The translations under genes and the position numbers were made by a program. 64,000 bases of DNA from Malus domestica (Eukaryota; Streptophyta; Magnoliopsida; Rosales; Rosaceae), in assembly GCF_042453785.1 (NCBI RefSeq), contig NC_091670.1, positions 35,041,501 to 35,105,500 of the forward strand, given 5' to 3'. Positions 33,604 through 62,038 of this stretch are shown here, one piece after another; position 1 is the first letter of the stretch; each line of letters begins with the position of its first letter. The notes below the pieces were generated by a model, which was not told where the DNA came from, ran no database searches, and worked only from the letters and a program-made list of their open reading frames with translations.

Positions 33604-33805
33604 TTTTGCTTCTCTCTCTGGTCTCTCTGTTTCTCTGCTCTCTGCTTCTGGTGGCGGGGGGCGGGGCGTCGCTATCAATTTCTTGTCCTTCTGATTTTTC
33701 TCGTTTATAGTTATATACGGGGGTAATATGGGAATATTATTCTGTTCAGACTGAACAGCAAACATTAGATTTTCAAATTATCAACAACAACAACAACAAC
33801 AACAA

Positions 33806-34398
33806 AGCCTTTTCCCACTAAGTGGGGTCGGCTATATGAATCCTAGAACGCCATTGCGCTCGGTTTTGTGTCATGTCCTCCGTTAGATCCAAGTAATCAA
33901 GTCTTTTCTTAGGGTCTCTTCCAAAGTTTTCCTAGGTCTTCCTCTACCCCTTCGGCCCTGAACTTCTGTCCCGTAGTCACATTTTCGAACCGGAGCGTCA
34001 GTAGGCCTTCTTTGCACATGTCCAAACCACCGGAACCGATTTTCTCTCATATTTCCTTCAATTTTGGCTATTCTTACTTTACCTTGGATATCCTCATTCC
34101 CAACTTATCCTTTCTCGTGTGCCCATACATCCCACGAAGCATCCTCATCTCCGCTACACCCATTTTGTGTACATGTTGATGCTTCACCGCCCAACATTCT
34201 GTGCCATACAACATCGTTGGCCTTATTGCCGTCCTATAAAATTTTCCCTTGAGCTTCAGTGGCCTACGACGATCACACAACACGCCGGATACACTCTTAC
34301 ACTTCATCCATCCAGCTTGTATTCTATGGTTGAGATCTCCATCTAATTCTTCGTTCTCTTGCAAGATAGATCCTAGGTAGCGAAAACGGTAACTTTTT
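33806..34398 (-). pseudogene. 5'-truncated RTE LINE 3' end (composite copy 1)
   Basis: About 590 bp homologous to the last 190 codons and 3' terminus of the RTE ORF ([39 protein letters not shown]). It keeps the terminal hairpin sequence cccactaagtggg (+ strand, around 33815) next to the TTG tail. It carries disabling changes. Homology to RTE ends abruptly at about 34398, where cargo begins. It is more diverged from the neighbouring RTE coding copies than those are from each other, suggesting an older insertion that was co-opted as the 3' end. Confidence 0.82.
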
Positions 34399-36059
34399 GT
34401 GATCTTCGCTAGATTGCTCCGGTCATTAGTGTGGATAAGTATATAAATGGATAGAGATAGGAAAGCAAACACAAGATGTACGTGATTCACCCAGATTGGC
34501 TACGTCCACGGAATAGAGGAGTTCTCATTAATTGTGAAGGGTTTACACAAGTACATAGGTTCAAGCTCTCCTTTAGGGAGTACAAGTGAATGATTTAGTA
34601 CAAATGACATTAGGAAATATTGTGGGAGAATGATCTCGTAACCACGAAACTTCTAAGTCCCGGAGTGTGGTATCGGCTTGACTTTCCTTATCTGTCTCAT
34701 AGGTAGATGTGGAATCTTCTCTAGAAGTACTCTTCCTCCATCCAGGGGTGGTATCTGTAACTGGTGGAGATGCACAAGGTAATGTATCAATGTCACTTGA
34801 AGCTTACTTGTAGTTTCAGGCTTGGTCAAGCGCGATACAAACCATGTAGTAGGAGTCCCCCAAGTCGCCGAGCTAGGGGATCTGCTGAAAGAGGTAACAG
34901 ACAAGGTAAGCAATCAGAGCTCTGGCTGATTGTTCACATTCTCCCTATCTTGCAGGCAGCATGAAGGATAAAGAGAAGAAAAATGAGAAGAGATGATATG
35001 GGATACTTTTGCTTTTGAAGAAGTAACTTTCCACAGGCTTATTCTTGAACTGGGCTGGAGGGTTTTCTGGTTTCCTCCAAAGTATAAGGCCGACTGAAGA
35101 ATTTGAGGGTCAAAACAAGTCCATCAAATCTAGAGTACGTTCGCCCCTGCTGATATGGGATACTTTTGCTTTTGACAGAGTAGTGGATATATCGGCACGT
35201 GTGCTGTTACGCTTGTCTCCACATGCTTCCTTGTATCCTTCTCACTTGCCTTATCCTCAGGCAGATGCGGTATCTTCCTTGGAAGCATAAGATGTTGAAG
35301 ATGAGTACTCGAGAGCAATGCCAGGGTAAGGGGTTCCAGGCAGTCAGTTCCTGGCTGGAAGCTTGATTCCAAGTGCTGACTGATTGCTCTCTTTCTCCTT
35401 GTCTTGCAGGTAAGAACAAGGCCAAAGGAAAAGACAGGGAAAAAGCATGATATGGGATACTCTTGCTTTTAACCCTGATGATATGAGATATTCTTGCTCT
35501 AGTATAGCTTGTTTACAGAGGTATTATCGGGGGGAAAGAAAGCTGAATATTTTGAAAGGCTTCGTTGGGAGTGCCCTCTCAGATAAGAGGAAGGGTTGAG
35601 CATTTTTGCAGGTCTGCCTGTCCGTTGGGGATGGAGGTCGCCATATATAGGAGTCTCCCTAACATCAAGTAATAATGCTATTCCTTTACCCTGCTTGGTC
35701 ATAGCACGGTAGTGGAAGCTGCCAGCTTCACAAGTTTTAACTCTGTCAGAGCACTTTGAAAAAGTGGTCTGTGGTATCTGGAAAGCTGATGTTGCGTGTG
35801 AAGATTACAGACAAGCTTTATCCAAGGAGATCCGGCTCTTGAAGTTGGGAAAGTGGTGCCTCTTCGGTTTTCGAACAAGCAATCCTGTCGGGGATCTGGC
35901 TCTCGAGACTCGGAGAACGATGCCTCTTCGATTTTTGAGAAAGCAATCATGCTGGGGGTCTGGCTCTCGAGATTCGGAGAGCGGTGTCTTCGATTTTTGA
36001 GAAAGCAATCATGCTGGGGGTCTGGCTCTCGAGATTCGGAGAGCGGTGTCTTCGATTTT

Positions 36060-36650
36060 TGAGAAAGTAATCATGTTGGGAGTTGGGAGTGTTTTCTCGA
36101 ATATGAGTAAAGGTTGGGCATGTTTGCTAGTCTACCTTGCCACGAAGCACAGAGGTTGACACACAGGGACTTTCCAATTATCCAGCAGTGGTACTGTTCC
36201 TTTACCCTCTCTTCGATTTTTGAGAAAGTAATCATGTTAGGAGTCTGGCTCTCGAGATTCGGAGGGCGGTGCCTCTTCGATTTTGGAGCAAGCAATCTTG
36301 TTGGGGGTGTTTTCTCGAATGTGAGTAAAGGTTGGGCATGTTTGCTAGTCTACCTTGCCACGAAGCACAGAGGATGACACACAGGGACTTTCAAATTATC
36401 CAGCAGTGGTACTGTTCCTTTACCCTCTATTCGATTTTTGAGAAAGTAATCATGTTGGGAGTCTGGCTCTCGAGATTCGGAGGGCGATGCCTCTTCGATT
36501 TTGGGGCAAGCAATTTTGTTGGGAGTGTTTTCTCGAATGTGAGTAAAGGTTGGGCATGTTTGCTAGTCTACCTTGCCATGAAGCACAGAGGTTGACACAC
36601 CGGGACTTTCCAATTATCCAGCAGTGGTACTGTTCCTTTACCCTTGTGGG
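36060..36650. repeat. 218-bp tandem repeat in the cargo
   Basis: Identical landmarks such as ggttgggcatgtttgctagt recur at exact 218-bp steps (about 36111, 36329 and 36547), giving about 2.7 units. The corresponding part of composite copy 2 has about two units at 54740-55150. Confidence 0.88.
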
Positions 36651-36776
36651 TAATAATAAGGTAGCTAGGCCGTCAAAATTTATGTGTCTAAACTTTGTTA
36701 GTGTTGTTTCTTTGCTATTCTTTTACCCTTCTTGGTCAGGGCGATGTAGTGAGAGTTGCAAGCTTCACGTGTCTCG

Positions 36777-37155
36777 ACTTTGTCAGAGAACTTTGGCAAA
36801 GTTATATGTGGTACCCATGAGCTACTGTTGCGTGTGGGAAGTGGGTGATTGAACAGTACGATTCATGTGCTTTCTACTTCGCCAGAAATCTTCGACAGAA
36901 TGCCCATAATTTCCGCAAAGCTGAGTGTGCGTGTGACAGGTGCTGACAAGGCTGGAAAAGTAGTCTCAACTTTGTCAGAGAACTTTGGCAAAGTTATATG
37001 TGGTACCCATGAGCTACTGTTGCGTGTGGGAAGTGGGTGATTGAACAGTACGATTCATGTGCTTTCTACTTCGCCAGAAATCTTCGACAGAATGCCCATA
37101 ATTTCCGCAAAGCTGAGTGTGCGTGTGACAGGTGCTGACAAGGCTGGAAAAGTAG
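36777..37155. repeat. 192-bp tandem duplication in the cargo
   Basis: A block starting actttgtcagagaacttt at 36777 repeats at 36969 almost unchanged. Copy 2 of the composite has only a single unit here (about 55285-55475). Confidence 0.85.
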
Positions 37156-37158
37156 GTG

Positions 37159-37490
37159 CCTCTTCGATTTCTGAGATCGACCCTCGTGGTCTCTGAGCAG
37201 CCCAGCTTTTGAGAAAGCAAACCTCTTCGATTTCTGAGATCGGCCCTCGTGGTCTCTGAGCAGCCCAGCTTTTGAGAAAGCAAACCTCTTCGATTTCTGA
37301 GATCGGCCCTCGTGGTCTCTGAGCAGCCCAGCTTTTGAGAAAGCAAACCTCTTCGATTTCTGAGATCGGCCTTCGTGGTCTTTGAGCAGCCCAGCTTTTG
37401 AGAAAGCAAACGCCTCTTCGATTTCTGAGATCGACCCTCGTGGTCTCTGAGCAGCCCAGCTTTTGAGAAAGCAAACGCCTCTTCGATTTC
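37159..37490. repeat. 63-65-bp tandem array in the cargo (about 5-6 units)
   Basis: The phrase cctcttcgatttctgagatc starts at 37159, 37222, 37285 and 37348, then in slightly longer units at 37413 and 37478. It lies directly upstream of the cargo ORF's TATA-like box. The apparent minus-strand ORFs of 130-175 codons here merely translate the repeat. Confidence 0.9.
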
Positions 37491-37632
37491 TGAAGCTTCG
37501 TCGAGTGCAGATTTTTATAGAGGCTAACATTAAGTTCCAAAGCACACTTGAATATCCACTTGTAGAAGCTCCATTCTTGCACTTCTAAGAACTTGATTTG
37601 TCCGACCTCTTCTCTCTTCTACACCTTTGAAA

Positions 37633-38307
37633 ATGTCTGGCCCCTCCGACCGTCGTTTTGACTTGAACCTTGTTGAAGAGGCAGCCCCGCCTTCTCCAGA
37701 CAACATATGGCGCCCATCCTTCGTCTCCCCTACTGGTCCTCTTACCGTTGGGGATTCCATGATGAAGAATGATATGACCGCTGCGGTAGTGGCCAGGAAC
37801 CTTCTCACTCCCAAAGATAACAGACTACTTTCCAAACGGTCTGATGAGTTGGCTGTTAAGGATTCTCTGGCTCTTAGTGTTCAGTGTGCAGGTTCTGTGT
37901 CTAATATGGCACAACGCCTATTTGCTCGAACCCGCCAAGTTGAATCATTGGCGGCTGAAGTGATGAGTCTCAAACAGGAGATTAGAGGGCTCAAGCATGA
38001 GAATAAACAGTTGCACCGGCTCGCACATGACTATGCTACAAACATGAAGAGGAAGCTTGACCAGATGAAGGAATCTGATGATCAAGTTTTACTTGATCAT
38101 CAGAGATTTGTGGGTTTGTTCCAAAGGCATTTATTGCCTTCGTCTTCTGGGGCTGTACCGCGTAATGAAGCTCCAAATGATCAACCTCTGATGCCTCCTC
38201 CTTCTAGGGTTCTGTCCAGTACTGAGGCTCCGCATGATCCCCCTCCGGTGCCTTCTCTTTCTGGGGCTCTACCCACTGCCGAGACTTCTCCTAAGCAACC
38301 TTTCTGA
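37633..38307 (+). CDS. Cargo ORF: 224-aa coiled-coil protein of unknown function (copy 1)
   Basis: The ATG (after ctttgaaa) opens a 225-codon frame. The N-terminus [20 protein letters not shown] is acidic and proline-rich and precedes [18 protein letters not shown]. Residues about 95-165 form a predicted coiled coil ([20 protein letters not shown] followed by [20 protein letters not shown]). The C-terminus is Pro/Ser-rich with three loosely repeated units (around [34 protein letters not shown]). No signal peptide, membrane segment or enzyme motif is seen. It has a plausible TATA-like box 113 bp upstream and an AATAAA 67 bp downstream. The reading frame is kept in both composite copies, with eight amino-acid differences. 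I do not recognise the family; it may descend from a retroelement gag-like or mobile-element accessory gene. Confidence 0.6.
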   Translation: MSGPSDRRFDLNLVEEAAPPSPDNIWRPSFVSPTGPLTVGDSMMKNDMTAAVVARNLLTPKDNRLLSKRSDELAVKDSLALSVQCAGSVSNMAQRLFARTRQVESLAAEVMSLKQEIRGLKHENKQLHRLAHDYATNMKRKLDQMKESDDQVLLDHQRFVGLFQRHLLPSSSGAVPRNEAPNDQPLMPPPSRVLSSTEAPHDPPPVPSLSGALPTAETSPKQPF

Positions 38308-38565
38308 AGGCTCCCTCTTGTTTGTTTATTTTGACTCAAGTATATGTACATATTTGTAATTTATCAAGATATCAATAAATAAGCTTTCCTTCATTTCAAC
38401 GTATTGTGTTAAATCACCAAAGCCTTCTTCGCTAAGTTCTTTGAATTTTCTTTTGTTGAAGCTTGTATGTTGGAGCTTTGTGAGTGGAGCATGTAGGTTG
38501 AGGTAGTGTTCCCTTAATTTCCCGAACGAGGACAACTTCTCGGTTGGAGACTTGGAAAATCCAAG

Positions 38566-41220
38566 TCACTGAGTGGGATCGGCTATATGAATCTTAGAAC
38601 GCCATTGTGTTCTGTCCTGTGTCATGTCCTCCGTTAGATCCAAGTACTCTAAGTCTTTTCTTAGGGTCTCTCTCAAAGTTTTCCTGGGTCTTCCTCTACC
38701 CCTTCGGCCCTGAACCTCTGTCCCATAGTCGCATCTTCTAATCGGAGCGTCAGTAGGCCTTCTTTGCACATGTCCAAACCACCGTAACCGATTTTCTCTC
38801 ATCTTTCCTTCAATTTCGGCTACTCCTACTTTACCCCGGATATCCTCATTCCTAATCTTATCCTTTCTCGTGTGCCCACACATCCAACGAAGCATCCTCA
38901 TCTCCGCTACACCCATTTTGTGTACGTGTTGATGCTTCACCGCCCAACATTCTGTGCCATACAGCATCGCCGGCCTTATTGCCGTCCTATAAAATTTTCC
39001 CTTGAGCTTCAGTGGCATACGGCGGTCACACAACACGCCGGATGCACTCTTCCACTTCATCCATCCAGCTTGTATTCTATGGTTGAGATCTCCATCTAAT
39101 TCTCCGTTCTTTTGCAAGATAGATCCTAGGTAACGAAAACGGTCGCTCTTTGGTATTTCTTGATCTCCGATCCTCACCCCTAACTCGTTTTGGCCTCCAT
39201 TTGCACTGAACTTGCACTCCATATATTCTGTCTTTGATCGGCTTAGGCGAAGACCTTTAGATTCCAACACTTCTCTCCAAAGGTTAAGCTTTGCATTTAC
39301 CCCTTCTTGAGTTTCATCTATCAACACTATATCGTCTGCGAAAAGCATACACCAAGGAATATCATCTTGAATATGTCCTGTTAACTCATCCATTACCAAC
39401 GCAAAGAGGTAAGGACTTAAGGATGAGCCTTGATGTAATCCTACAGTTATGGGAAAGCTTTCGGTTTGTCCTTCATGAGTTCTTACGGCAGTCTTTGCTC
39501 CTTCATACATATCCTGTATAGCTTGGATATATGCTACTCGTACTCCTTTCTTCTCTAAAATCCTCCAAAGAATGTCTCTTGGGACCCTATCATACGCTTT
39601 TTCCAAATCTATAAAGACCATGTGTAAATCCTTTTTCCCATCTCTATATCTTTCCATCAATCTTCGTAAGAGATAGATTGCCTCCATGGTTGAGCGCCCT
39701 GGCATGAACCCGAATTGGTTGTCCGAAACCCGTGTCTCTTGCCTCAATCTATGCTCAATGACTCTCTCCCAGAGCTTCATTGTATGACTCATTAGCTTAA
39801 TACCCCTATAGTTCATGCAATTTTGTACATCGCCCTTATTCTTGTAGATAGGCACCAAAGTGCTCGTTCGCCACTCATTTGGCATCTTCTTCGTTTTCAA
39901 AATCCTATTGAAAAGGTCAGTGAGCCATGTTATACCCGTCTCTCCCAAAACTTTCCACACTTCGATTGGTATATCGTCTGGGCCTACTGCTTTTCTATGC
40001 TTCATCTTCTTCAAAGCTACAACCACTTCTTCCTTCCGGATTCTACGATAAAAAGAGTAGTTTCTACACTCTTCTGAGTTACTCAACTCCCCTAAAGAAG
40101 CACTCCTTTCATGTCCTTCATTGAAAAGATTATGAAAATAACCTTTCTATCTGTCTTTAACCGCGTTCTCTGTAGCAAGAACCTTTCCATCCTCATCCTT
40201 GATGCACCTCACTTGGTTTAGGTCCCTTGTCTTCTTTTCCCTTGCTCTAGCTAGTTTATAGATATCCAACTCTCCTTCTTTGGTATCTAGTCGTTTATAC
40301 ATATCGTCATAAGCCGCTAACTTAGCTTCTCTCACAGCTTTCTTCGCCTCTTGCTTCGCTTTTCTATACCTTTCACCATTTTCATCGGTCCTATCCTTGT
40401 ATAAGGCTTTACAACATTCCTTCTTAGCCTTCACCTTTGTTTGTACCTCCTCATTCCATCACCACGATTCCTTTTGGTGTGGGGCAAAGCCCTTGGACTC
40501 TCCTAATACCTCTTTTGCTACTTTTCGGATACAACTAGCCATGGAATCCCACATTTGGTTAGCTTCCCCCTCTCTATCCCACACACACTGGGTGGTTATT
40601 TTCTCTTTGAAAATGACTTGTTTTTCTTCTTTTAGATTCCACCATCTAGTCCTTGGGCACTTCCAAGTCTTGTTCTTTTTTCTCACTCTTTTGATATGTA
40701 CATCCATCACCAACAAGCGATGTTGATTAGCCACGCTCTCTCCTGGTATAACTTTGCAATCCTTACAAGTTATACGATCCCTTTTCCTCATTAGAAGAAA
40801 ATCTATTTGTATTTTTGACGACCCACTCTTGTAGGTGATCACATGTTCTTCCCGCTTCTTAAAGAAGGTGTTGGCTAAGAAGAGATCATATGCCATTGCA
40901 AAATCCAAGATAGCTTCCCCATCCTCGTTTCTCTCCCCAAAACCATGGCCACCATGAAAACCTCCATAGTTGCCTGTCTCCCTGCCCACGTGTCCATTTA
41001 AATCTCCTCCTATAAATAACTTCTCCGTCTGAGCAATTCCTTGCACCAAGTCTCCAAGGTCTTCCCAAAATTTCTCCTTCGAACTCGTATCCAACCCTAC
41101 TTGAGGTGCGTACGCACTAATCACATTGATAAGTTCTTGTCCTATTACAATCTTAATTGCCATGATTCTATCTCCTACCCTCTTGACATCTACAACATCT
41201 TGTGTCAAGGTCTTGTCCAT
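38566..41220 (-). pseudogene. RTE LINE endonuclease/RT, 5'-truncated with two nonsense codons
   Basis: One reading frame runs from the truncation at about 41220 to TGA at 38566. It covers most of the endonuclease ([38 protein letters not shown]) and all of the reverse transcriptase ([81 protein letters not shown]). It is broken by TGA at 40459-40461 and TAG at 40147-40149, each replacing a Trp codon that is intact in copy 2. The N-terminal endonuclease residues are lost with the truncation. The stop codon lies exactly at the junction with cargo. Confidence 0.9.
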
Positions 41221-48567: not shown

Positions 48568-51500
48568 TTACACCGCCGACTTCTCTGTTACAGCACCATC
48601 TTTCAAATCGTAAGCAGCATCAGCGGAAGAGGTGTCGATGTCATTCAGACCCAATTCTTCATTTTGCTCCCATGACCTCTCATAATCCTCAACTGGAGTC
48701 AGCCGGCACCAAAGAAAACAATGTCAAGCATAAGAAAACAATGACTGGTGTCTTAATCAGCTAAACGAACGAACAAGCAGTACAATATAAGGAACTCGGA
48801 AAGAAAAATTAAAATAAAATGCAAATGAAAAAACTGGTAAGCATATGAGGTCTGCTTGTCACACAAGCGTTTGGCGGAGATATATGACTTGACATCAGTT
48901 TTTAATAGTGTTCTCCAAGTTCTACCGTGACTTAAATCATTATCGCACTTGAAGATTGTCTGCAAGAAAACTGTAGATCCGCCAGAAACAGATAACCAAT
49001 TTCATTGGTGGTGGTGAACAAGGGAGCTAAAACTGCTTAGATGCCTACCAGGTTAGGTTTGTGAGACACCACACAACTTGAGATGCATACAGCGACACAC
49101 AACTGATGTAGTTCTAAGAATCTTTTTGCAAGTATATGTAGTGACAATGTAGAAAAACAACTCGATTACATAGACGTTGCAGAATCTAAATGAACAGACA
49201 AAAAACCCTCTCTTGACCCAGCCAAGGAAAAAAAGTTCTCTCTCGCATGTCACATATATGATTGTCAGCGACTCAGCAATCATCCTCTACTATTGTTAAG
49301 TGTTAACTATGACATTTTTTAAGGAGGAACCTGAATTTTTAAAGTACACTTGAGATGGAAGAAAGAAGTCTTACACATCAACTGATGGTCATCTTTTATA
49401 TCATCAGTCGCTGGTGCAATAAAAGAATTAGCCAATGCGTCATCAAGAATTAAAGTCCAAGGCTCTTCTAAACACAGAAGCTGCAGCAGAGGGAGAGAAG
49501 TTAAGGGAAAAACTGATATTGTCTGTGGAAAAAGTAAAGCCACCATAATTATACATAAAAAGACAACTACAAAAAAAGATAGAATAAAGCAAACCAATTT
49601 TCCGCAGCCATTACGAAAAAGAACATATCCATATTAGAAATTTATGCCATCTTTACAATGTTCGAATAAATTTCTGGCACAAAAATTTTAGTCCATCTAG
49701 TATGTTCCATGCATTGATGAAAAAGAATAATACAGAAATTAAAAGCTGTGACCGCATATTTCTTTTCTATACATGTTCCAGTGAAAGGCCATCTAGTACC
49801 TTTTTCAGGCTTGTGTGAAAATTTAGCCACTTGCTTTTCTTATTCTCATCAATACTGTCTCCAAAACTAAATCCATGCACTCTTTCAAGACCTGCAAAAC
49901 AAATTATAAAGTCACTCTCTCAAAACCAGAACGCAGGTGAGCCATATCAGTTCCAGGTAATTAGAACAGATACCAAAGTTAAATTCCACTCTTTAAGGTA
50001 CTCATAAGGAATTAAAAGAATCATAAACTAGAAAGCACAGCATGTCACGGACAGCACAGACAGAAATATCAGCACTTACTTTCACTAATTTTCATTATCA
50101 AGCCTTCAATAGTTGTAACAACCCCTCCCAGAGTGCCACTAGCCAGCTCCAACTCAATTTCTGGAATTATTACGCTCGCAGTATCTGACTGAGCCAGCAT
50201 GATAGTTTGTCAGACGACGGTTTGCAACTTCATACTAAAAATAAAGGTATTAACATCTCATGGACTCGAAACCAACACACATGTATCACATCTTAAGTTG
50301 ATATTGTTATTCTCCACATTCAGGATGCTTGTATGTATGTCTATAACCATATAAACAAACTAATCTGAGCAAACGAAAAAAAATCTTGTAATACACTTTT
50401 TGTCACATTCTTATAGTATATATCTGTACATCACTTAGTAGTTAGTACCACAAGCAATGGCAAAACAAAACCTTTATTTTTACAGCATTGATAAACCAAT
50501 AAAACAGTCCATACTCTCCCATCTTTTCCACAATTTTCTGTCTGATGGAAATCTAAAGTTCCTTATTCTTGTGCAGAAATTGCAGCAAAATTCTCTAAAG
50601 ATTCAGCCAACAACCACTCTAATCGGAACCATTAGAACTCAACCATGGGAAAGCAATGTCAAGTGCTACACGTTACTGGTATACGGGCAAATGGAAGTAG
50701 TATATGCACAGATCATAAGATAAAGACAAGATATGATAAGCACATGGTAATAGACATCATAAGATACAGAGGAGATATGATAAGCACATGGTAATAGACC
50801 TTTATTACATCACGACTAAGATCCTTAACATTCTTCACACGAAGAATAATTTTCTTTCCTTTCTCAGGAACTCGTCCACCAGGCTTCAACTGCACAAGAG
50901 AGCTTAATTTAACAACAAAGCATGGAAGAGAGAAAAAGAAAATAATCAGATCAGTACAAACCTCAGAATTGCGGTAACCGCAATTGTCACAGGTGGATGC
51001 CATGACAATTACCTCTTGAAAATATGGAATGTCTGTAAATGGTTAAGAAGAAAAAAAATATTGCAAAAAGAAGTTCTAAAGGTATCCTAAATTTCTTTAG
51101 CAACCAACTGGATTGTTTTAATCTCTCTTTGGATGTGTTCTTTTCCGGTTATTGTGGGATCTACAGATAGGCCATTGGTTTAAAGAGGAAAATCCATTTT
51201 CACAAGACTAAAAACAGTTCCATTTGATCAGCTATAAAAGAGAAGCAACTTATTGACTCAAATATCTGAAGACTGGTAAAAGATGCAAAGGGATACGGGT
51301 GACAAACATTCGAGTTTCACACCTAGCAGTACAACCTCCGCATGTTGATGGGAAAGTCATCACCTGTCAAACAGTGGAAATATTCACTAAATATTTCAAA
51401 ATCTAATCTATAAATGCTGAAAAGATACAGACTTGTAGTGCATAGAACACTTAATAAATGTGTACCTCCTCTGGAGCTGTGTATCGAAACAAAGATTCAG

Positions 51501-54500
51501 CAATTTCAGCACTATTACTCTGAGCAATGGCCCGATGACCAGCTGCTGCTCCAATTGAGCCATGTGGGACTCTTTGTACTTGGTCAGAAGTGCTAACCGC
51601 TTCTGTTGATGCTGCATCAACAACATACCCTAATGTTTTTTGTTGCTCTGGAGTTCGCTCATAAAACCTTATACTCAATGATGGATCAGGGGATGGAGCA
51701 AACCTGCACAAATAACATTTTATACCCTCAGCCAGTGAAAGGTTCGAACAGAAAGCAACATTAAGTGTCAAAATATAGCAACAATGAAGAAAAATTCTGA
51801 GTCCACCACAAATGCAAGTCTCTTATGAGACATTAGCTGCATTCCTTTTAAAAGTGAATCCAACTTAAACTGTATATTGAATTATTGATAGAACGGACCC
51901 CAAGGACCAAAGTTATAACAAAATGGTTCTCTTTTCAAAATTGAGAATCTCTTACAGGTTCTCAACAAAGCTGTTTCCAGCTGGATCATCAAGAATGAAG
52001 GTGAAGGACAAGTCTGCTGTAGCACAGGCTCTCAACTTTAACAAAAACTGGTCCAAGGCTTCAGCAGTCTGAGGATCCACTTTCTGAAAACTCAAAAGAC
52101 AGCAAGTAAATATTGAGAAAAAACTATATTATCTTATTAAACAATAACTGTAAGACGTATATGAACCTTGCGTTCTTCTTGAAGTGCTTGTAATTCATCT
52201 GCTGCTCGTAACAATATCCCCTCAACCTAAATTATCACACAAATATAAGATGTTTGGAAAGGGAGAGGTTCGGGTGGGGGTGGAAGGTAGGTACTTCTGG
52301 AAAAAAAATATAAGAAAAAAACTGAACTGAAGGTACAAATATATGAGAAATTATACACCAAAGACAAAACTACATAATTAAAAAGGTGATACAGGGAGAA
52401 CCAACCACTTAAGCCTACCCATCCTAAAAGATAATAAATAAAAGGAATTTAATTTTCCTAGTTATCACCCTTGCACAACAACAACAACAACAACAAAGTC
52501 TTTTCCCACTAAGTGGGGTCGGCTATATGAATCCTAGAACGCCATTGCGCTCGGTTTTGTGTCATGTCCTCCGTTCGATCCAAGTACTCTAAGTCTTTTC
52601 TTAGAGTCTCTTCTAAAGTTTTCCTAGGTCTTCCTCTACCCCTTCGGCCCTAAACCTCTGTCCCGTAGTCACATCTTCGAACCGGAGCGTCAGTCGGCCT
52701 TCTTTGCCCATGTCCAAATCACCGGAACCGATTTTCTCTCATCTTTCCTTCAATTTCGGCTACTCCTACTTTACCTCGGATATCCTCATGCCCAATCTTA
52801 TCCTTTCTCGTGTGCCCACACATCCCACGAAGCATCCTCATCTCCGCTACACCCATTTTGTGTACGTGTTGATGCTTCACCGTCCAACATTCTGTGCCAT
52901 ACAACATCGTTGGCCTTATTGTCGTCCTATAAAATTTTCCCTTGAGCTTCAGTGGCCTACGACGGTCACATAACACGCCGGATGCACTCTTACACTTCAT
53001 CCGTCCAGGTCGTATTCTATGGTTGAGATCTCCATCTAATTCTCCGTTCTCTTGCAAGATAGATCCTAGGCAGCAAAAACGGTCGCTTTTTGTGATCTTC
53101 GCTAGATTGCTCCGGTCATTAGTGTGGATAAGTATATAAATGAATAGAGATAGGAGAGCAAACACAAGATGTACGTGGTTCACCCAGATTGGCTACGTCC
53201 ACGGAATAGAAGAGTTCTCATTAATTGTGAAGGGTTTACACAAGTACATAGGTTCAAGCTCTCCTTTAGTGAGTACAAGTGAATGATTTAGTACAAATGA
53301 CATTAGGAAATATTGTGAGAGAATGATCTCGTAATAACGAAACTTCTAAGTATCGGAGTGTGGTATCGTCTTGACTTGCCTTATCTGTCTCATAGGTAGA
53401 TGTGGCATCTTCTCTGGAAGTACTCTTCCTCCATCCAGGGGTGGTATCTTTAACTGGTGGAGATGCACAAGGTAATGTATCAATTTCACTTGAAGCTTAC
53501 TTGTAGTTTCAGGCTTGGTCAAGCGCGATACAAACCATGTAGTAGGAGTCTCCCAAGTCGCCGAGCTAGGGGATCTGCTGAAAGAGGTGACAGACAAGGT
53601 AAGCAATCAGAGCTCCGGCTGATTGTTCACCTTCTCCCCATCTTGCAGCAGCATGAAGGATAAAGAGAAGAAAGATGAGAAGAGATGATATGGGATACTT
53701 TTGCTTTTGAAGAAGTAACTTTCCACAGGCTTATTCTTGAACTGAGCTGGAGGGTTTTCTGGTTTCCTCCAGAGCCGACTGAAGAATTTGAGGGTCAAAA
53801 CAAGTCCATCAAATCTAGAGTACGTTCGACCCTGCTGATATGGGATACTTTTGCTTTTGACAGAGTAATGGATGTATCGGCACGTGTGCTGTTACGCTTG
53901 TCTCCACATGCTTCCTTGTATCCTTCGCACTTGCCCTATCTGTTCCTCAAGCAGATGCGGTATCTTCCCTGGAAACATAAGATGTTGAAGATGAGTACTC
54001 GAGAGCAATGCCAGGTAAGTAATCAGGTAAGGGGTTCCAGGCAGTCAGTTCCTGGCTGGAAGCTTGATTCCAAGTGCTGACTGATTGCTCTCTTTCTCCT
54101 TGTCTTGCAGGTAACAACAAGGCCAAAGGAAAAGACAGGGAAAAAGCATGATATGGGATACTCTTGCTTTTAACCCTGATGATATGAGATATTCTTGCTC
54201 TAGTATAGCTTGTTTGCAAAGGTATTATCGGGGGGAAAGAAAGCTGAATATTTCGAAAGGCTTCGTTGGGAGTGCCCTCTCAAATATGAGGAAGGGTTGA
54301 ACATTTTTGCAGGTCTGCCTGTCCGTTGGGGATGGAGGTCGACATATATAGGAGTCTCCCTAACAACAAGTAGTAATGCTATTCCTTTACCCTGCTTGGT
54401 CATAGCACGGTAGTGGGAGCTGCCAGCTTCACATGTTTTAACTCTGTCAGAGCACTTTGAAAAAGTGGTCTGTGCTCTCGAGAAGTCTTCGACAGAATGC

Positions 54501-57500
54501 CCATAATTTCCGCAAAGCTGAGTGTGCGTGTGACAGGTGCTGACAAGGCTAGAAAAGTAGGGGCCTCTTCGATTTCTGAGATCGGCCCTCGTGGTCTCTG
54601 AGCAGCCCAGCTTTTGAGAAAGCGAGCGTCTCTTCGATTGATTCGGAGAACGATGCATCTTCGATTTTTAAGAAAGCAATCATGATGGGGGTCTGGCTCT
54701 CGAGATTCGGAGAGCAGTGTCACTTCGATTTTTGAGAAAGTAATCATGTTGGGAGTCTGGCTCTCGAGATTCGGAGGGCGGTGCCTCTTCGATTTTGGAG
54801 CAAGCAATCTTGTTGGGAGTGTTTTCTCGAATGTGAGTAAAGGTGGGGCATGTTTGCTAGTCTACCTTGCCACGAAGCACAGAGGTTGACACACAGGGAT
54901 TTTCCAATTATCCAGCAATGGTACTGTTCCTTTACCCTCTCTTTGATTTTTGAGAAAGTAGTCATGTTAGGAGTCTGGCTCTCGAGATTCGGAGGACGGT
55001 GCCTCTTCGATTTTGGAGCAAGCAATCTTATTGGTAGTGTTTTCTCGAGTGTGAGTAAAGGTTGGGCATGTTTGCTAGTCTACCTTGCCACGAAGCACAG
55101 AGGTTGACACAGGGACTTTCCAATTATCCAGCAGTGGTACTGTTCCTTTACCCTTGTGGGTAATAATATGGTAGCTAGACCTTCAAAATTTATGGGTCTA
55201 AACTTTGTTAGTGCTGTTTCTTTGCTATTCTTTTACCTTTCTTGGTCAGAGCGATGTAGTGGGAGCTGCAAGCTTTACATGCTCAATTTTGGCAGAGAAC
55301 TTTGGCAAAGTTATCTGTGGTACCCATGAGCTAGTGTTGCGTGTGGGAAGTGGGTGATTGAACAGTAAGATTCATGTGTTTTATACTTCCTCAGAAGTCT
55401 TCGACAGAATGCCCATAATTTCCGCAAAGCTGAGTGTGCGTGTGACAGGTGCTGACAAGGCTGGAAAAGTAGGTGCCTCTTCGATTTCTGAGATCAGCCC
55501 TCGTGGTCTCTGAGGAGCCCAGCTTTTGAGAAAGCGAGCGCCTCTTCGATTTCTGAGATCGGCCTTCGTGGTCTTTGAGCAGCCTAACTTTTGAGAAAGC
55601 AAACGCCTCTTCGATTTCTGAGATCAACCCTCGTGGTCTCTAAGCAGCCCAGCTTTTGAGAAAGCAAACGCCTTTTCGATTTCTGAGCAGGCGCCTCTTC
55701 GATTTCTGAAGATCCGTCGAGTGCAGATTTTTATAGGGGCTGGCATTAAGTTCCAAAGCACACTTGAATCTCCACCAGTAGAAGTTCCATTCTTGCACTT
55801 CTAAGATCTTGATTTGTCCAACCTCTTCTCTCTTCAACACCTTTGAAAATGTCTGGCCCCTCCGACCGTCGTTTTGACTTGAACCTTGTTGAAGAGGCAA
55901 CCCCGCCTTCTCCAGACAACATATGGCGCCCATCCTTCGTCTCCCCTACTGGTCCTCTTACCGTTGGGGATTCCGTGATGAAGAATGATATGACTGCTGC
56001 GGTGGTGGCCAGGAACCTTCTCACTCCCAAAGATAACAGACTACTTTCCAAACGGTCTGATGAGTTAGCTGTTAAGGATTCGCTGGCTCTCAGTGTTCAG
56101 TGTGCAGGTTCTGTGTCTAATATGGCCCAACGCCTATTTGCTCGAACCCGCCAAGTTGAATCATTGGCGGCTGAGGTGATGAGTCTCAAACAGGAGATTA
56201 GAGGGCTCAAGCATGAGAATAAACAGTTGCACCGGCTCGCACATGACTATGCTACAAACATGAAGAGGAAGCTTGACCAGATGAAGGAAACTGATGGTCA
56301 GGTTTTACTTGATCATCAGAGATTTGTGGGTTTGTTCCAAAGGCATTTATTGCCTTCGTCTTCTGGAGCTGTACCGCGTAATGAAGCTCCAAATAATCAA
56401 CCTCTGATGCCTCCTCCTTCTAGGGTTCTGTCCAGTACTGAGGTTCCGAATGATCCCCCTCCGGTGCCTTCTCTTTCTGGGGCTCTACCGACTGCTGAGA
56501 CTTCTCCTAAGCAACCCTTGTGAAGGCTCCCTCTTGTTTGTTTATTTTGACTCATGTATATGTACACATTTGTAGCTTATCGGGGATATCAATAAATAAG
56601 TTTTCCTTCATTTCAACGTATTGTGTTAAATACACCAAAACCTTCTTCGCTAAGTTCTTTGAATTTTCTTTTGTTGAAGCTTGTATGTTGAAGCTTTCTG
56701 AGTGGAGCATGTAGGTTGGGGTAGTGTTCCCTTAATTTCCCGAGTGAGGAAAACTTCTCGATTGGAGACTTGGAAAATCCAAGTCACTGAGTGGGATCGG
56801 CTATATGAATCTTAGAACGCCATTGTGCTCGGTCCTGTGTCATGTCCTTCGTTAGATCCAAGTACTCTAAGTCTTTTCTTAGAGTCTCTTCCAAAGTTTT
56901 TCTAGGTCTTCCTCTACCCCTTCGGCCCTGAACCTCTGTCCCATAGTCGCATCTTCTAATCGGAGCGTCAGTAGGCCTTCGTTGCACATGTCCAAACCAC
57001 CGTAACCGATTTTCTCTCATCTTGCCTTCAATTTCGGCTACTCCTACTTTACCCCGGATATCCTCATTCTTAATCTTATCCTTTCTCGTGTGCCCACACA
57101 TCCAACGAAGCATCCTCATCTCCGCTACACCCATTTTGTGTATGTGTTGATGCTTCACCGCCCAACATTCTGTGCCATACAGCATCGCTGGCCTTATTGC
57201 CGTCCTATAAAATTTTCCCTTGAGCTTCAGTGGCATACGGCGGTCACACAACACGCCGGATGCACTCTTCCACTTCATCCATCCAGCTTGTATTCTATGG
57301 TTGAGATCTCCATCTAATTCTCCGTTCTTTTGCAAGATAGATCCTAGGTAACGAAAACGGTCGCTCTTTGGTATTTCTTGATCTCCGATCCTCACCCCTA
57401 ACTCGTTTTGGCCTCCATTTGCACTGAACTTGCACTCCATATATTCTGTCTTTGATCGGCTTAGGCGAAGACCTTTAGATTCCAACACTTCTCTCCAAAG

Positions 57501-60500
57501 GTTAAGCTTTGCATTTACCCCTTCCTGAGTTTCATCTATCAACACTATATCGTCTGCGAAAAGCATACACCAAGGAATATCATCTTGAATATGTCCTGTT
57601 AACTCATCCATTACCAACGCAAAAAGGTAAGGACTTAAGGATGAGCCTTGATGTAATCCTACAGTTATGGGAAAGCTTTCGGTTTGTCCTTCATGAGTTC
57701 TTACGGCAGTCTTTGCTCCTTCATACATATCCTTTATAGCTTGGATATATGCTACTCGTACTCCTTTCTTCTCTAAAATCCTCCAAAGAATGTCTCTTGG
57801 GACCCTATCATACGCTTTTTCCAAATCTATAAAGACCATGTGTAAATCCTTTTTCCCATCTCTATATCTTTCCATCAATCTTCGTAAGAGATAGATTGCC
57901 TCCATGGTTGAGCGCCCTGGCATGAACCCGAATTGGTTGTCCGAAACCCGTGTCTCTTGCCTCAATCTATGCTCAATGACTCTCTCCCAAAGCTTCATTG
58001 TATGACTCATTAGCTTAATACCCCTATAGTTCATGCAATTTTGTACGTCACCCTTATTCTTGTAGATAGGCACCAAAGTGCTCGTTCGCCACTCATTTGG
58101 CATCTTCTTCGTTTTCAAAATCCTATTGAAAAGGTCAGTGAGCCATGTTATACCTGTCTCTCCCAAAACTTTCCACACTTCGATTGGTATATCGTCTGGG
58201 CCTACTGCTTTTCTATGCTTCATCTTCTTCAAAGCTACAACCACTTCTTCCTTCCGGATTCTACGATAAAAAGAGTAGTTTCTACACTCTTCTGAGTTAC
58301 TCAACTCCCCTAAAGAAGCACTCCTTTCATGTCCTTCATTGAAAAGATTATGAAAATAACATTTCCATCTGTCTTTAACCGCGTTCTCTGTAGCAAGAAC
58401 CTTTCCATCCTCATCCTTGATGCACCTCACTTGGTTTAGGTCCTTTGTCTTCTTTTCCCTTGCTCTAGCTAATTTATAGATATCCAACTCTCCTTCTTTG
58501 GTATCTAGTCGCTTATACATATCGTCATAAGCCGCTAACTTAGCTTCTCTCACAGCTTTCTTCGCTTCTTGCTTCGCTTTTCTATACCTTTCACCATTTT
58601 CATCGGTCCTATCCTTGTATAAGGCTTTACAACATTCCTTCTTAGCCTTCATCTTTGTTTGTACCTCCTCATTCCACCACCAAGATTCCTTTTGGTGTGG
58701 GGCAAAACCTTTGGACTCTCCTAATACCTCTTTTGCTACTTTTCGAATACAACTAGCCATGGAATCCCACATTTGGCTAGCTTCCCTCTCTCTATCCCAC
58801 ACACACTGGGTGATTACTTTCTCTTTGAAAATGACTTGTTTTTCTTCTTTTAGATTCCACCATCTAGTCCTTGGGCACTTCCAAGTCTTGTTCTTTTGTC
58901 TCACTCTTTTGATATGTACATCCATCACCAACAAGCGATGTTGATTAGCCACGCTCTCTCCTGGTATAACTTTGCAATCCTTACAAGTTATACGATCTCC
59001 TTTCCTCATTAGGAGAAAATCTATTTGTGTTTTTGACGACCCACTCTTGTAGGTGATCACATGTTCTTCTCTCTTCTTAAAGAAGGTGTTGGCTAAGAAG
59101 AGATCATATGCCATTGCAAAATCCAAGATAGCTTCCCCATCCTCGTTTCTCTCCCCAAAACCATGGCCACCATGAAAACCTCCATAGTTGCCTGTCTCCC
59201 TGCCCACGTGTCCATTTAAATCTCCTCCTATAAATAACTTCTCCGTCTGAGCAATTCCTTGCACCAAGTCTCCAAGGTCTTCCCAAAATTTCTCCTTCGA
59301 ACTCTTATCCAACCCTACTTGAGGTGCGTACGCACTAATCACATTGATAAGTTCTTGTCCTATTACAATCTTGATTGCCATGATTCTATCTCCTACCCTC
59401 TTGACATCTACAACATCTTGTGTCAAGGTCTTGTCCACGATGATGCCAACACCGTTTCTCGTTCTATTTGTGCCCGAATACCAAAGTTTAAACCCTGAGT
59501 TTTCTAGATCCTTTGCCTTACTACCAACCCACTTAGTTTCTTGTAGGCACATAATATTTATCCTTCTCCTCACCATAACTTCCACTACTTCCATAGATTT
59601 TCCCGTTAAGGTTCCTATATTCCACGTTCCTAAACGCATTTTGCTCTCTTGAACTCTACCATTCTGTCCTAGCTTCTTCACCCTCCCCCGTCTAATAGGA
59701 TCAAAGTACTTCTTTTGTGTGTCCCGTGTAAAGTTGATAGGAGCATATGCTCCCGAACAACTTTGAGTGGAGTCGTTCGAAAAGAAGTTTCTATCACCCT
59801 TGCACATATGCCTAAAATATGTGCCAAAGGCTAGAGCCAGTGACAAATAGATTTACTTTCAGTCAGCACCTTTTGCATATAAACAAATTTAAATCAAACC
59901 TTTACTCTTTCAACTATTACAGAAACGGTCCGCAAGTCCCAAAAGGGGGTAAAAGAAAATGATTGCCTTGACTGAAGGAAAACAGAGAACTTAAAGAAAT
60001 CTGTTATACTCAAAATGCTTCAATGTACAATCTGTTGAATACAGACCACAAGTCATACAAGTAAAAAATGAGATATCACTACCAACCACAAAATTACCAA
60101 AAAAGAGAAAGGAATCCAGGTGAATGGAGCTAATCCACTAAGCAGCAATTTGTACAACTCTACTAGAGAAGAGGGGGAAGTAAAACAATACCGTTGACAG
60201 AGATCCACGCTGAGACTCCGGAGGAATCTCAAAATCCAATTCGGGAATCTGTGGACACAAATGAAAGAGAATGCACAACTCAATACATTTTTGTTAACTT
60301 ATAGAAATAGATATTATAGACAATCCCACAAGCAATAAGAACAAATAAAATTAATCTTAGTTTGACTAATTTTGTAGCCTTTTATTATCGTTCTTCTTGA
60401 TCATCTAGTAAGAGGAATTATAAAATAATAAATACGAAAAACATTATCATTTCTATTAGTGTCAATTAGCACCACAAAGGGATATATTATAGCAGACTGG

Positions 60501-62038
60501 AAACTCTAGGTCAAAATTTTTATCTGCAGCTCTTTTTTAAAAACAACAGATAAAATCTACAATTTATATTTTTTTTATACCACCTGATAACCTAATTAGC
60601 TAAGATCTGGAAGTACTTATGTACAGTATATACTCAACTCAACAGGATTCATTTATCTCACAAAGAAAAAAGCGATGGGCCACTACTGGGATCCAACCCC
60701 AGTCTCCCCAGCCAGAATGTGAAAACCTTACCACTAAACTAGCTAACTAACCAACATTAAATCAAAGTTACCACTAGAAACTGTAAGTCAGCATTCAACC
60801 AATTCAAGATTTAGAACTTTTTTAACAATAATGAATAATGATTATGTTACTCTGAACTAACAAATCCAATAAGCTCTCCAGCTAAACTCGGATAATATAA
60901 AGACAACAAAAACAAGTTATTTTATTAAAGTCAACATAATTGAAGATGTTAAAGAAACTGTACATTACAGAAATGTAAAATGGAAAAGAATTAATACATT
61001 GAACTTCAAGCAGGATATACTCAAGTACCTTAATAGTAGCAGACTCAGACTTCACCACTTGTCGATTAAGCATCTGCACAGAAAAAGTTCATCAATTCTG
61101 CAATCCTGAAGGAGGGGGAATGCTCAATACACTTCAGCGAAAATATCATGTATCGCATTGTGTAGTATAATTTCAATCTCCATTTCCATTACCGATCACT
61201 TACTTCAATCAAACCAGACTTCTAGAGCACATACTATTAGTTGTGACTTGAGATTATCATAAAAATGCACACACAGACCCAAACACGAAAAGCAAAATAA
61301 ACATAAAGATAAGGATTTTGCGAGTATAACTTATTAGTGCCTTCAATACGATAAGTACTTCTTGTGAACTTAGCTAAATACCGCAAATTTGAGACACAAA
61401 TGAGAGATAAAATGATCCATATAATGTCAATTAACAAAATTTTGATTAGTCTAACCTTGGGGTCGCCAGAAGGCACCTCCAACTGGTAGCAGCAACCTTT
61501 GGGTTGGAGCTCACCAGCAAACTGAACCTCATTATTCCTGCAGCAAAACAAAACATACAAGATCAAAAACTTCACTCAGCAATAAAAAATTGAACAAACT
61601 ATCATCACATAGTTTGAACTTTTACCTCTCATTGCAATGCGGGCACTCGAAAGCCGAAAGCAAAATCTGCACACCAACAAACACTTTCATTTACACACAG
61701 CAACAACAGAAAGAACAAGAAATTGGCGAAATTGATCAGAATTAGATGCACACCTTTCTGAAGTGTGGAATCAGAGTCAGCAGAAAACTGGTAGTACCCT
61801 GAAATCAACAATAAACTTAACAAATCGGATGATAAAAATTAAAACAGAGAAGCCCTAAGAAGCAATTAAGAGGGAGATAGAGAGAGAGAGAGAGTACGTT
61901 TTCGCCGCAGCGCATGCAGAGGCTTTCGACTCGGTAGAGGGGGGCGTCGGAGTCGTCGGCGGAGACGGCTTCGACCACCGAGCGGACATCCACGATTTGG
62001 TTCTGGTCTTTGGCGTTGCTATTGCTATTGCCTTCCAT
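48568..62038 (-). CDS. ZPR1: ZPR1 zinc-finger protein, sixteen exons, 498 aa
   Basis: Minus-strand exons: 61898-62038, 61754-61798, 61626-61666, 61456-61537, 61029-61073, 60192-60248, 52167-52226, 51956-52083, 51466-51703, 51297-51363, 50962-51032, 50800-50889, 50080-50188, 49800-49891, 49375-49480 and 48568-48692. They total 1497 nt in frame. ZPR1 binds translation elongation factor eEF1A and is needed for its folding and for growth. The protein shows the duplicated ZPR1 layout: zinc finger 1 (SLCMRCGEN...FECPHCNER), with [20 protein letters not shown] and [14 protein letters not shown] after it; zinc finger 2 ([16 protein letters not shown]...[12 protein letters not shown]), with [20 protein letters not shown] and [16 protein letters not shown]. 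The C-terminus is acidic. All Cys pairs are present. Intron 6 (52227-60191) is about 8 kb because of the composite LINE, in the same transcriptional sense as ZPR1. Confidence 0.94.
52463..52477. repeat. 15-bp target-site duplication (left) of composite LINE copy 2
   Basis: tatcacccttgcaca lies directly against the (CAA)n end of the element and is repeated without mismatch at 59792-59806. Confidence 0.95.
52498..53093 (-). pseudogene. 5'-truncated RTE LINE 3' end (composite copy 2)
   Basis: About 600 bp equivalent to the last 190 or so codons and 3' terminus of the RTE ORF ([36 protein letters not shown]), with disabling changes. It ends with the hairpin sequence cccactaagtggg (+ strand, 52505-52517) and then the TTG repeat tail. 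RTE homology stops at about 53093, where cargo starts, at the same point as in copy 1. Confidence 0.85.
53094..56777 (+). other. Cargo segment of composite copy 2
   Basis: About 3.7 kb collinear with 34399-38565 but with fewer tandem units: about two of the 218-bp repeat (54740-55150), one of the 192-bp repeat, and four of the 65-bp repeat (55476-55690). A 224-aa ORF and an AATAAA (56591-56596) follow. There is no RTE homology. Other than the ORF there is no recognised coding sequence. Confidence 0.7.
55849..56523 (+). CDS. Cargo ORF: 224-aa coiled-coil protein of unknown function (copy 2)
   Basis: Same length and layout as the ORF at 37633-38307: acidic N-terminus, central coiled coil ([20 protein letters not shown]) and Pro/Ser-rich C-terminus. 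The eight amino-acid differences from copy 1 are all conservative or in the loose tail (for example A19T, M43V, S-to-T and D-to-G near the end of the coiled coil, and a final Leu for Phe). A TATA-like ttttatag lies about 120 bp upstream. The retained frame over 225 codons in two copies suggests it was under selection until recently, or that the copies are young. Function is unknown. Confidence 0.6.
   Translation: MSGPSDRRFDLNLVEEATPPSPDNIWRPSFVSPTGPLTVGDSVMKNDMTAAVVARNLLTPKDNRLLSKRSDELAVKDSLALSVQCAGSVSNMAQRLFARTRQVESLAAEVMSLKQEIRGLKHENKQLHRLAHDYATNMKRKLDQMKETDGQVLLDHQRFVGLFQRHLLPSSSGAVPRNEAPNNQPLMPPPSRVLSSTEVPNDPPPVPSLSGALPTAETSPKQPL
56784..59639 (-). CDS. RTE-clade LINE endonuclease/reverse transcriptase, 951 aa, intact
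   Basis: Start ATG 59637-59639 ([15 protein letters not shown]), chosen because the open frame upstream runs through the element's 5' end into ZPR1 intron sequence. Residues 1-230: AP-type endonuclease with [29 protein letters not shown] and NQHRLLVMD. Residues about 400-720: reverse transcriptase with [88 protein letters not shown] and the catalytic [10 protein letters not shown]. The C-terminal part ends HIADPTQ. A single ORF of this size with a simple-repeat 3' tail is typical of the RTE clade. No disrupting mutation is seen, so the enzyme may be active if transcribed. Confidence 0.92.
59792..59806. repeat. 15-bp target-site duplication (right) of composite LINE copy 2
   Basis: Exact repeat of 52463-52477, directly at the 5' end of the RTE unit. 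ZPR1 intron sequence continues on either side. Confidence 0.95.
60660..60765 (-). mobile_element. tRNA-like SINE head or tRNA relic in ZPR1 intron 5
   Basis: On the minus strand the sequence reads tagctagtttagtggtaagg (box-A-like). About 30 bp later comes ggggttggatcccagt (box-B-like with altered core), a tRNA-like spacing. It does not fold as a complete tRNA by eye and lacks proper acceptor-stem pairing. It is more likely a decayed SINE head than a tRNA gene. Confidence 0.45.

What the first reader, a model, noticed from the sequence alone, without database searches (positions are those of the whole stretch)
52478..59791. A two-LINE composite with 3.7 kb of cargo moved as one unit (15-bp target duplication)
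On the minus strand the unit reads RTE ORF, then non-RTE cargo, then a second 5'-truncated RTE 3' end, then a TTG tail. A perfect 15-bp duplication (tatcacccttgcaca at 52463-52477 and 59792-59806) encloses all of it, so the parts were reverse-transcribed together. The simplest reading is an RTE transcript that ran through its own missing end, across downstream DNA, and stopped at a second RTE's 3' end. This is an extreme 3' transduction that yields a cargo-carrying LINE. Long LINE transductions are known, chiefly for mammalian L1. I know of no described plant RTE carrying a gene-sized cargo bracketed by a second RTE terminus.
Basis: partly seen in the sequence, partly recalled or inferred. Interest (0 to 1): 0.88.

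Follow-up and report, generated by a model that had tools for sequence, protein, structure and literature searches.

The report
Plant LINE carrying an LTR-retrotransposon gene
A jumping element in an apple-like genome has built a piece of a different kind of jumping element into itself, including a backwards gene that still looks maintained by selection, and the combined unit has spread to more than a thousand places in the genome.

Summary
In detail: 52478-59791 is one retrotransposed unit with a perfect 15-bp target duplication, and its RTE 3' end occurs twice (92.7% identical) around 3.7 kb of other DNA. But it is no lone transduction. It is a 5'-truncated member of a large LINE family, about 7.58 kb at full length, whose two internal junctions occur 1,749 and 1,225 times exactly in the genome. 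Copies show variable 5' truncation, one fixed (TTG)n end and, in 14 of 21, target duplications of 13-20 bp.

The cargo is not host DNA. It is the pol-to-3'LTR region plus part of the LTR of a Ty3/gypsy retrotransposon, with a 224-codon antisense ORF. An older subfamily (288 exact junctions) has the gypsy LTR terminus directly abutting RTE sequence; the other join lies in a 5-nt microhomology.

The antisense ORF is intact in 24 of 25 LINE-borne copies read. Among four composite lineages it has 24 synonymous to 18 non-synonymous changes (P = 4e-5 against a neutral spectrum); its omega (0.20) is close to that of the LINE's own RT ORF (0.18). So it appears maintained since capture. Template switching versus deletion plus read-through as founder is unresolved; no source locus was found.

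The parts
52463..52477 (.). target duplication, copy at the LINE 3' side
   Evidence: exact 15-bp match to 59792-59806
59792..59806 (.). target duplication, copy at the LINE 5' side
   Evidence: exact 15-bp match to 52463-52477
52478..52496 (-). (TTG)n tail
   Evidence: sequence; same end in the 20 fetched copies
52478..53092 (-). terminal, 5'-truncated RTE 3' end
   Evidence: 92.7% identical to 56785-57370; 2 in-frame stops
53085..53105 (-). junction B, gypsy LTR remnant to terminal RTE (position approximate to a few nt)
   Evidence: 21-nt pattern occurs 1,225 times exactly in the genome
53090..53329 (-). remnant of the gypsy LTR, lacking about 50 nt of its end; coordinates approximate
   Evidence: alignment to L058/L059 LTRs
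53330..56784 (-). gypsy region between pol and 3' LTR, with tandem repeats; start approximate
   Evidence: 87-91% pieces shared with L057/L058; tandem repeats
55849..56523 (+). antisense ORF (aORF), 224 codons plus stop
56766..56794 (-). junction A, internal RTE 3' end to gypsy, within CCACT (position approximate to a few nt)
   Evidence: 29-nt pattern occurs 1,749 times exactly; comparison with RTE end and gypsy
56784..59791 (-). RTE body: endonuclease-RT ORF, 951 codons from MRLG; 5'-truncated by about 258 nt against full-length copies
   Evidence: Pfam Exo_endo_phos 4.7e-9, RVT_1 4.7e-36
33787..41219 (-). second, older copy of the same composite (W1), 5'-truncated, 2 stops in its RT frame, aORF intact

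Best explanation
The unit is one copy of an RTE-type LINE family that took in the 3' part of a Ty3/gypsy LTR retrotransposon and has propagated it since. Shown: full-length copies (about 7.58 kb) read 5' leader, one endonuclease-RT ORF, junction A, gypsy pol-to-LTR region with an antisense 224-codon ORF, LTR remnant, second RTE 3' end, (TTG)n; they insert as whole units with target duplications and 5' truncation. Inferred from LINE biology: the RNA runs through the gypsy segment to the terminal RTE 3' end, which the encoded RT recognises for target-primed reverse transcription, so the segment rides as an internal module. Inferred origin: a gypsy element inserted into a genomic RTE copy in the same orientation (the older L049 subfamily still has the LTR terminus abutting RTE); RNA reading from the gypsy 3' region into that RTE's 3' end was copied by RTE RT, which switched template at CCACT onto the end of an RTE mRNA; a later deletion of about 50 nt of LTR and 270 nt of RTE gave the window subfamily. 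The aORF is probably still translated from its own antisense transcript and kept by selection (statistical support only, no expression data).
For: Family: 20 of 20 fetched copies carry the composite 3' half, 19 of 20 reach junction A; 7 of 20 start at the same 5' base with 15-20 bp duplications; exact junctions 1,749 and 1,225, reversed controls 0; on contig C1 29 of 47 B junctions have a collinear A, 0 in the wrong order. Gypsy identity: complete donor-type element with gag, RT, RNase H, integrase, two LTRs and a 5-bp duplication. Nested insertion: LTR terminus to RTE join, 288 exact. Single origin: tree of RTE ends. aORF selection; RT comparison.
Against: No locus with the gypsy still whole inside an RTE was seen; the search for it did not complete. 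The template switch is inferred from one microhomology; a DNA deletion fits nearly as well. The selection test rests on four lineages, and young-copy singletons (8 synonymous, 15 not) do not differ significantly from them (Fisher P = 0.12). L049, the older form, has 2 stops in its full-length aORF frame. The 20 fetched copies are top hits and over-represent the youngest subgroup. 6 of 21 copies and W1 gave no target duplication. RTE assignment is by structure and tail, not by an RT tree.
Confidence: 0.85

Rival explanations
1. Founder by DNA deletion plus 3' transduction. An RTE stood upstream of a gypsy nested in a second RTE. A microhomology deletion fused the first RTE's end to the gypsy 3' region, and ordinary read-through to the second RTE 3' end then mobilised the whole unit. 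Close to the first reader's model.
For: Microhomology CCACT at junction A fits end joining as well as template switching. A deletion-type change at junction B did happen later. Read-through transduction is reviewed as a mechanism for plant retrotransposons (PMC13317346, passages seen).
Against: Needs an RTE, a gypsy and a second RTE in line and same orientation, and a deletion that removes the first RTE's tail, the second RTE's 5' part and gypsy gag-pol at once. No such locus was found, but none could be searched for to the end.
Confidence: 0.38
2. The antisense ORF is a passive passenger. It looks conserved only because the sampled copies are young or by chance in few lineages.
For: Young-copy singletons are 8 synonymous to 15 non-synonymous, as expected without selection, and Fisher's test against the lineages gives P = 0.12. 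No expression evidence. The older composite L049 has 2 stops.
Against: 24 synonymous to 18 non-synonymous among four lineages, P = 4.1e-5; codon positions 10, 5, 27. Omega 0.195-0.262 in 6 of 6 composite pairs against 0.345-1.19 among 15 pairs of gypsy copies. ORF divergence 3.0% against 4.6% in the non-coding cargo. Omega for the RT ORF of the same pair is 0.18.
Confidence: 0.35
3. The gypsy segment plus terminal RTE end was first a separate SINE-like element parasitising the RTE, and the composite arose by fusion of an RTE with it.
For: Non-autonomous elements that borrow an RTE 3' end are known in plants (TS SINE, PMC3747384, passages seen). 5'-truncated copies that start inside the cargo exist (L020).
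Against: 7 of 20 copies start at one RTE 5' base and the rest at scattered points, with no second preferred start. The older L049 copy also carries the RTE side of junction A.
Confidence: 0.06
4. Unrelated nested insertions and segmental duplication at this locus.
For: Nesting is common in plant genomes (general knowledge).
Against: Exact junctions more than a thousand times, collinear, with separate target duplications and differing flanks.
Confidence: 0.01

Closest known systems
Plant RTE-clade LINEs with (TTG)n tails (e.g. RTE-1_Stu, named in PMC3747384, passages seen)
   Same: Endonuclease-RT ORF that ends close to the element's 3' end, (TTG)n tail, 5' truncation, variable target duplications
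   Different: Here a gypsy segment of about 3.7 kb and a second copy of the RTE 3' end follow the ORF
Retand-type Ty3/gypsy elements (PMC11963269, PMC7264820, passages seen)
   Same: The donor has a long pol-to-3'LTR region with tandem repeats and an antisense ORF
   Different: TRP28 domain not found; lineage not tested by a tree; in the composite the region moves by LINE machinery without gag, pol or whole LTRs
3' transduction by LINEs, chiefly mammalian L1 (PMC9311842: listing and abstract start seen)
   Same: Downstream sequence carried inside a LINE insertion, ended by a usable 3' terminus
   Different: Cargo is another retroelement's 3' region; the captured unit became a family of its own; one join shows a microhomology
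Template-switch chimeras of plant LTR retrotransposons (PMC1950507: listing and abstract start seen)
   Same: Two retroelement templates joined in one insertion
   Different: Those join LTR elements; here LINE and LTR element are joined and the product amplified
Drosophila HeT-A/TART telomeric LINEs (recalled)
   Same: LINEs with long 3' regions, internal repeats of terminal sequence and antisense transcription
   Different: Telomeric specialists; I recall no LTR-element origin for their 3' region

Membership tests
RTE-clade LINE | One ORF with endonuclease and RT domains | tested here: met
   Exo_endo_phos 4.7e-9 and RVT_1 4.7e-36; 1,052 codons from first M in the reference copy
RTE-clade LINE | (TTG)n tail, as stated for plant RTEs | tested here: met
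   Sequence of the window copy and 20 fetched copies; rule from PMC3747384
RTE-clade LINE | Target-primed insertion: 5' truncation, fixed 3' end, target duplications | tested here: met
   14 of 21 copies with 13-20 bp, 1 with 8 bp, 6 none; scattered 5' ends
RTE-clade LINE | RT phylogeny within RTE | not tested
Ty3/gypsy LTR retrotransposon (donor of the cargo) | LTRs, gag, RT, RNase H, integrase, 5-bp target duplication | tested here: met
   L058/L059; the protease match is weak (0.16)
Retand-lineage gypsy (donor of the cargo) | Long pol-to-3'LTR region with antisense ORF | tested here: met
   literature
Retand-lineage gypsy (donor of the cargo) | TRP28 domain (97% of clusters in PMC11963269) | tested here: not met
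   No PF04195 among Pfam matches to E = 10 for the window aORF and the L058 aORF
Retand-lineage gypsy (donor of the cargo) | RT phylogeny within Retand | not tested
   Not attempted; donor called Retand-like in layout only
LINE 3' transduction | Downstream flank of a source locus inside the duplicated target | tested here: inconclusive
   Cargo lies inside the duplication but no source locus was found; search unanswered
HODOR (apple high-copy repeat, KX869746) | Sequence identity to the published 9,716-bp repeat | not testable with these tools
   I had no copy of KX869746; papers call HODOR an LTR element (passages)

The most novel reading that the evidence does not exclude
A plant LINE has acquired a working gene across retrotransposon classes. 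The antisense ORF of a gypsy element, whose role in its own element is unknown, was captured by an RTE LINE, is expressed from its own antisense promoter inside the LINE, and is kept by selection about as strongly as the LINE's own reverse transcriptase because it aids LINE propagation.
Probability: 0.45. Interest if true: 0.88.

Novelty: new variant of a known kind. Interest (0 to 1): 0.72.

Why it matters
Antisense ORFs between pol and the 3' LTR are a common feature of plant gypsy elements of the Retand type, and their function is described as unknown (PMC11963269, PMC7264820; passages seen). A LINE that carries one away from gag, pol and whole LTRs and still seems to keep it intact separates the gene from its home machinery. 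That makes an open question testable: whatever the protein does should work for a LINE too. It is also a plant non-LTR element with a gene-sized captured module amplified to more than a thousand exact junctions. In the 2026 review of gene capture in plants (PMC13317346) the terms non-LTR and RTE do not occur (12 of 16 matched places seen, and LINEs are named there in the classification).

Tried and rejected
Host gene as cargo: rejected once the stretch proved to be gypsy. A very long gypsy LTR as cargo, starting at the gypsy transcription start: considered, then dropped when the 5' LTR showed the LTR to be about 515 bp. Solo-LTR insertion into one RTE: rejected, because the RTE 3' end is duplicated, not just split. 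Structure prediction of the aORF: machine busy at all 5 attempts. Count of full-length 5' ends genome-wide: unanswered. Count of the commoner 3' end variant: unanswered, not repeated. Subfamily searches with P0003 and P0036: unanswered, not repeated. Relatives of the aORF outside Malus: the listing shows the best 120 of 2,078, all with Malus names, so its spread is unknown. HODOR: not testable.

Errors found on checking and mended: one search gave omega 0.46 and 7 stops for the RT ORF of W1, but its alignment ran past the 5' end of W1 into flanking DNA; restricted to the homologous part it is 0.18 with 2 stops. One search printed only one of three aORF starts in L049; one is a full-length frame with 2 stops, two are partial duplicates.

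Sampling: the 20 fetched full copies are 20 of the 39 non-window hits among the 40 scored as closest to the window copy (3,591 first-look candidates). Junction counts and the C1 pairing are free of that bias but count exact matches only.
Full report
OBSERVATION. The 15-bp repeat TATCACCCTTGCACA is exact at 52463-52477 and 59792-59806 and is the longest word the flanks share. Of 1,992 random pairs of 40-nt stretches from the window, 1 shared 15 nt or more. Between the repeats, on the minus strand, lie an endonuclease-RT ORF (Pfam), 3.7 kb of other sequence, a second RTE 3' end and a TTG tail. The two RTE ends, 56785-57370 and 52507-53092, are 92.7% identical over 586 nt.

IT IS A FAMILY. The same composite lies a second time in this window at 33787-41219 (W1). 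In the window's own genome (651 Mb, 19 contigs; an apple by protein relatives and size, which is inference) a 2-kb query gave 3,591 first-look candidates, and the 40 scored are all shown at 100% after rounding. I fetched 20 of the 39 others at 9 kb each. All 20 carry the cargo joined to the terminal RTE end; 19 of 20 reach junction A, and one (L020) is truncated inside the cargo. The window copy is itself truncated: shared sequence continues upstream in 10 of 20. Seven of 20 begin at one and the same base and have 15-20 bp target duplications there. Of 21 copies (20 plus the window copy), 14 have duplications of 13-20 bp, one has 8 bp, and six gave none; W1 gave none. Of the 12 copies that reach the start of the conserved RT frame, 9 have it uninterrupted. 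The 21 copies lie 0.15-0.46% from their majority sequence over 4.1 kb. These 20 are closest hits, so they show the youngest subgroup.

COUNTS FREE OF THAT BIAS. Junction A (RTE end to cargo, 29 nt) occurs 1,749 times exactly (815 and 934 by strand) and junction B (cargo to terminal RTE, 21 nt) 1,225 times (617 and 608); reversed-pattern controls are 0. On contig C1, whose places are listed in full in both answers, 29 of 47 B places have an A on the same strand, in the right order, 3.4-4.5 kb upstream; the wrong order occurs 0 times; 79 A places were given to the test. The other 18 B places have no exact A in reach, by truncation or mutation. I also sampled 600-nt stretches upstream of 20 of 76 exact RTE 3' ends: 5 are composites of the window type, 1 is of an older type (L036/L049), 7 are RTE without cargo, 7 had no informative match. 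A cargo-less RTE (L050) is 97.1% identical to the composite's RTE over 2,085 nt. So the composite is a branch of an ordinary RTE family.

WHAT THE CARGO IS. The cargo holds a 224-codon ORF on the opposite strand (55849-56523). A protein search found 2,078 relatives; the 120 listed all bear Malus names. A diverged relative (P0106) used as genome query led to loci where the same region goes on without any RTE (6 of 6 loci cut). One of them, L058/L059 on C6, is a Ty3/gypsy element of about 13.2 kb: gag, RT, RNase H and integrase by Pfam (protease only weakly), two LTRs of about 515 bp that are 96.9% alike, and AAATT on both outer sides as read from the printed flanks. The cargo is the stretch from behind pol into the 3' LTR, in the same sense as the RTE; the ORF is therefore antisense in both elements. 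Antisense ORFs between pol and the 3' LTR, and tandem repeats there, are described for Retand-type elements, with function unknown (PMC11963269 and PMC7264820, passages seen). The TRP28 domain usual in Retand was not found, so I call the donor Retand-like in layout only.

HOW THE JOINS LOOK. In L049 the gypsy LTR ends at its true terminus (GCATCAACA, the same end as in L057 and L058) and RTE sequence follows directly. That join occurs 288 times exactly, so this older form multiplied too, and it means that a gypsy element had inserted into an RTE copy. The window subfamily lacks about 50 nt of that LTR end and about 270 nt of the adjoining RTE. Junction A is different: the RTE end and the gypsy share CCACT exactly (CCACTYAGTG with one mismatch), and the last RTE codon and the stop read from the gypsy side. 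Template switching by the RTE reverse transcriptase and a microhomology deletion could both make it. I lean to template switching, because otherwise RTE tail, RTE 5' part and gypsy gag-pol must all vanish in one deletion, but the margin is small.

ONE ORIGIN. In a tree of eight RTE ends the internal copies of the composite group together (0.999) and the terminal ones group with L049's (0.87), with the cargo-less RTE between them. The internal, coding ends of the reference copy and W1 are 97.8% alike, the terminal, non-coding ones 95.0%.

IS THE ANTISENSE ORF MAINTAINED? It is intact in the 22 composite copies and in L060 and L061; in L049 the full-length frame has 2 stops: 24 of 25. Between the window copy and W1 there are 12 synonymous and 8 non-synonymous changes (omega 0.20). 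The RT ORF of the same pair, over the 881 codons they share, has 25 and 18 (omega 0.18) and 2 stops in W1 (the value 0.46 was wrong, because its alignment ran into flanking DNA). From the cargo's own non-coding changes (128 in 2,792 sites) a neutral ORF should show 27% synonymous; P = 0.002, and the ORF differs at 3.0% of sites against 4.6%. Among four composite lineages (young majority, W1, L060, L061) omega is 0.195-0.262 in 6 of 6 pairs; among six gypsy copies it is 0.345-1.19 in 15 pairs. Counted as derived changes the four lineages give 24 synonymous and 18 non-synonymous, codon positions 10, 5 and 27, P = 4.1e-5. Against this: four lineages only, and the singletons of young copies (8 to 15) do not differ significantly from them (Fisher P = 0.12). 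One opposite-strand frame shows a similar split (20 to 21), but none of the three is open (6-12 stops). I take the ORF as probably maintained, with no expression evidence.

AGE. Mean divergence from the majority is about a quarter of a percent; years would need a rate that I did not test.

LITERATURE. Searches on HODOR and apple, apple or plant RTE, LINE transduction in plants, chimeric LINE/LTR elements and antisense ORFs listed no paper whose title or abstract start describes this; the library holds open-licence papers only and I read passages, not whole papers. PMC11197308 reports a Retand clade in apple and has no RTE hit (passages). PMC13317346 has no hit for non-LTR or RTE.

VERDICT. A real, young and large LINE family with a captured gypsy module. 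The capture is a new variant of known processes; the seemingly maintained antisense gene is the part worth following.

Noticed in passing
window 50713-51042 (-) and 61817-62167 (-): The LINE copy seems to sit in an intron of a ZPR1 zinc-finger gene on the same strand: the first stretch matches Pfam Zn_ribbon_ZPR1 at 7.5e-13; the second looked to me like its N-terminal exon (recalled; Pfam gave nothing convincing).
   Followed up: partly
window 33787-41219: Older copy of the same composite, 2 stops in the RT frame but an intact antisense ORF; its spacing of tandem repeats differs from the window copy.
   Followed up: yes
L049 2362-5019: Tandem triplication of about 583 nt inside the gypsy segment, which duplicates the 5' part of the antisense ORF.
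   Followed up: partly
L018: Near-full-length copy whose 5' side is joined to two other pieces of the element (E3018-3187 and E1482-1777); perhaps a template-switch product of this same RT.
   Followed up: no
protein clusters P0009-P0029 and P0022/P0034/P0036: Some annotated apple proteins join the antisense ORF to other predicted exons (322 to 379 aa); may be annotation artefacts or spliced antisense transcripts.
   Followed up: no
window 53593-53650 and 54010-54110 (+): On the aORF strand two stretches look like small introns (GTAAG...TTGCAG) upstream of the ORF (by eye); untested.
   Followed up: no
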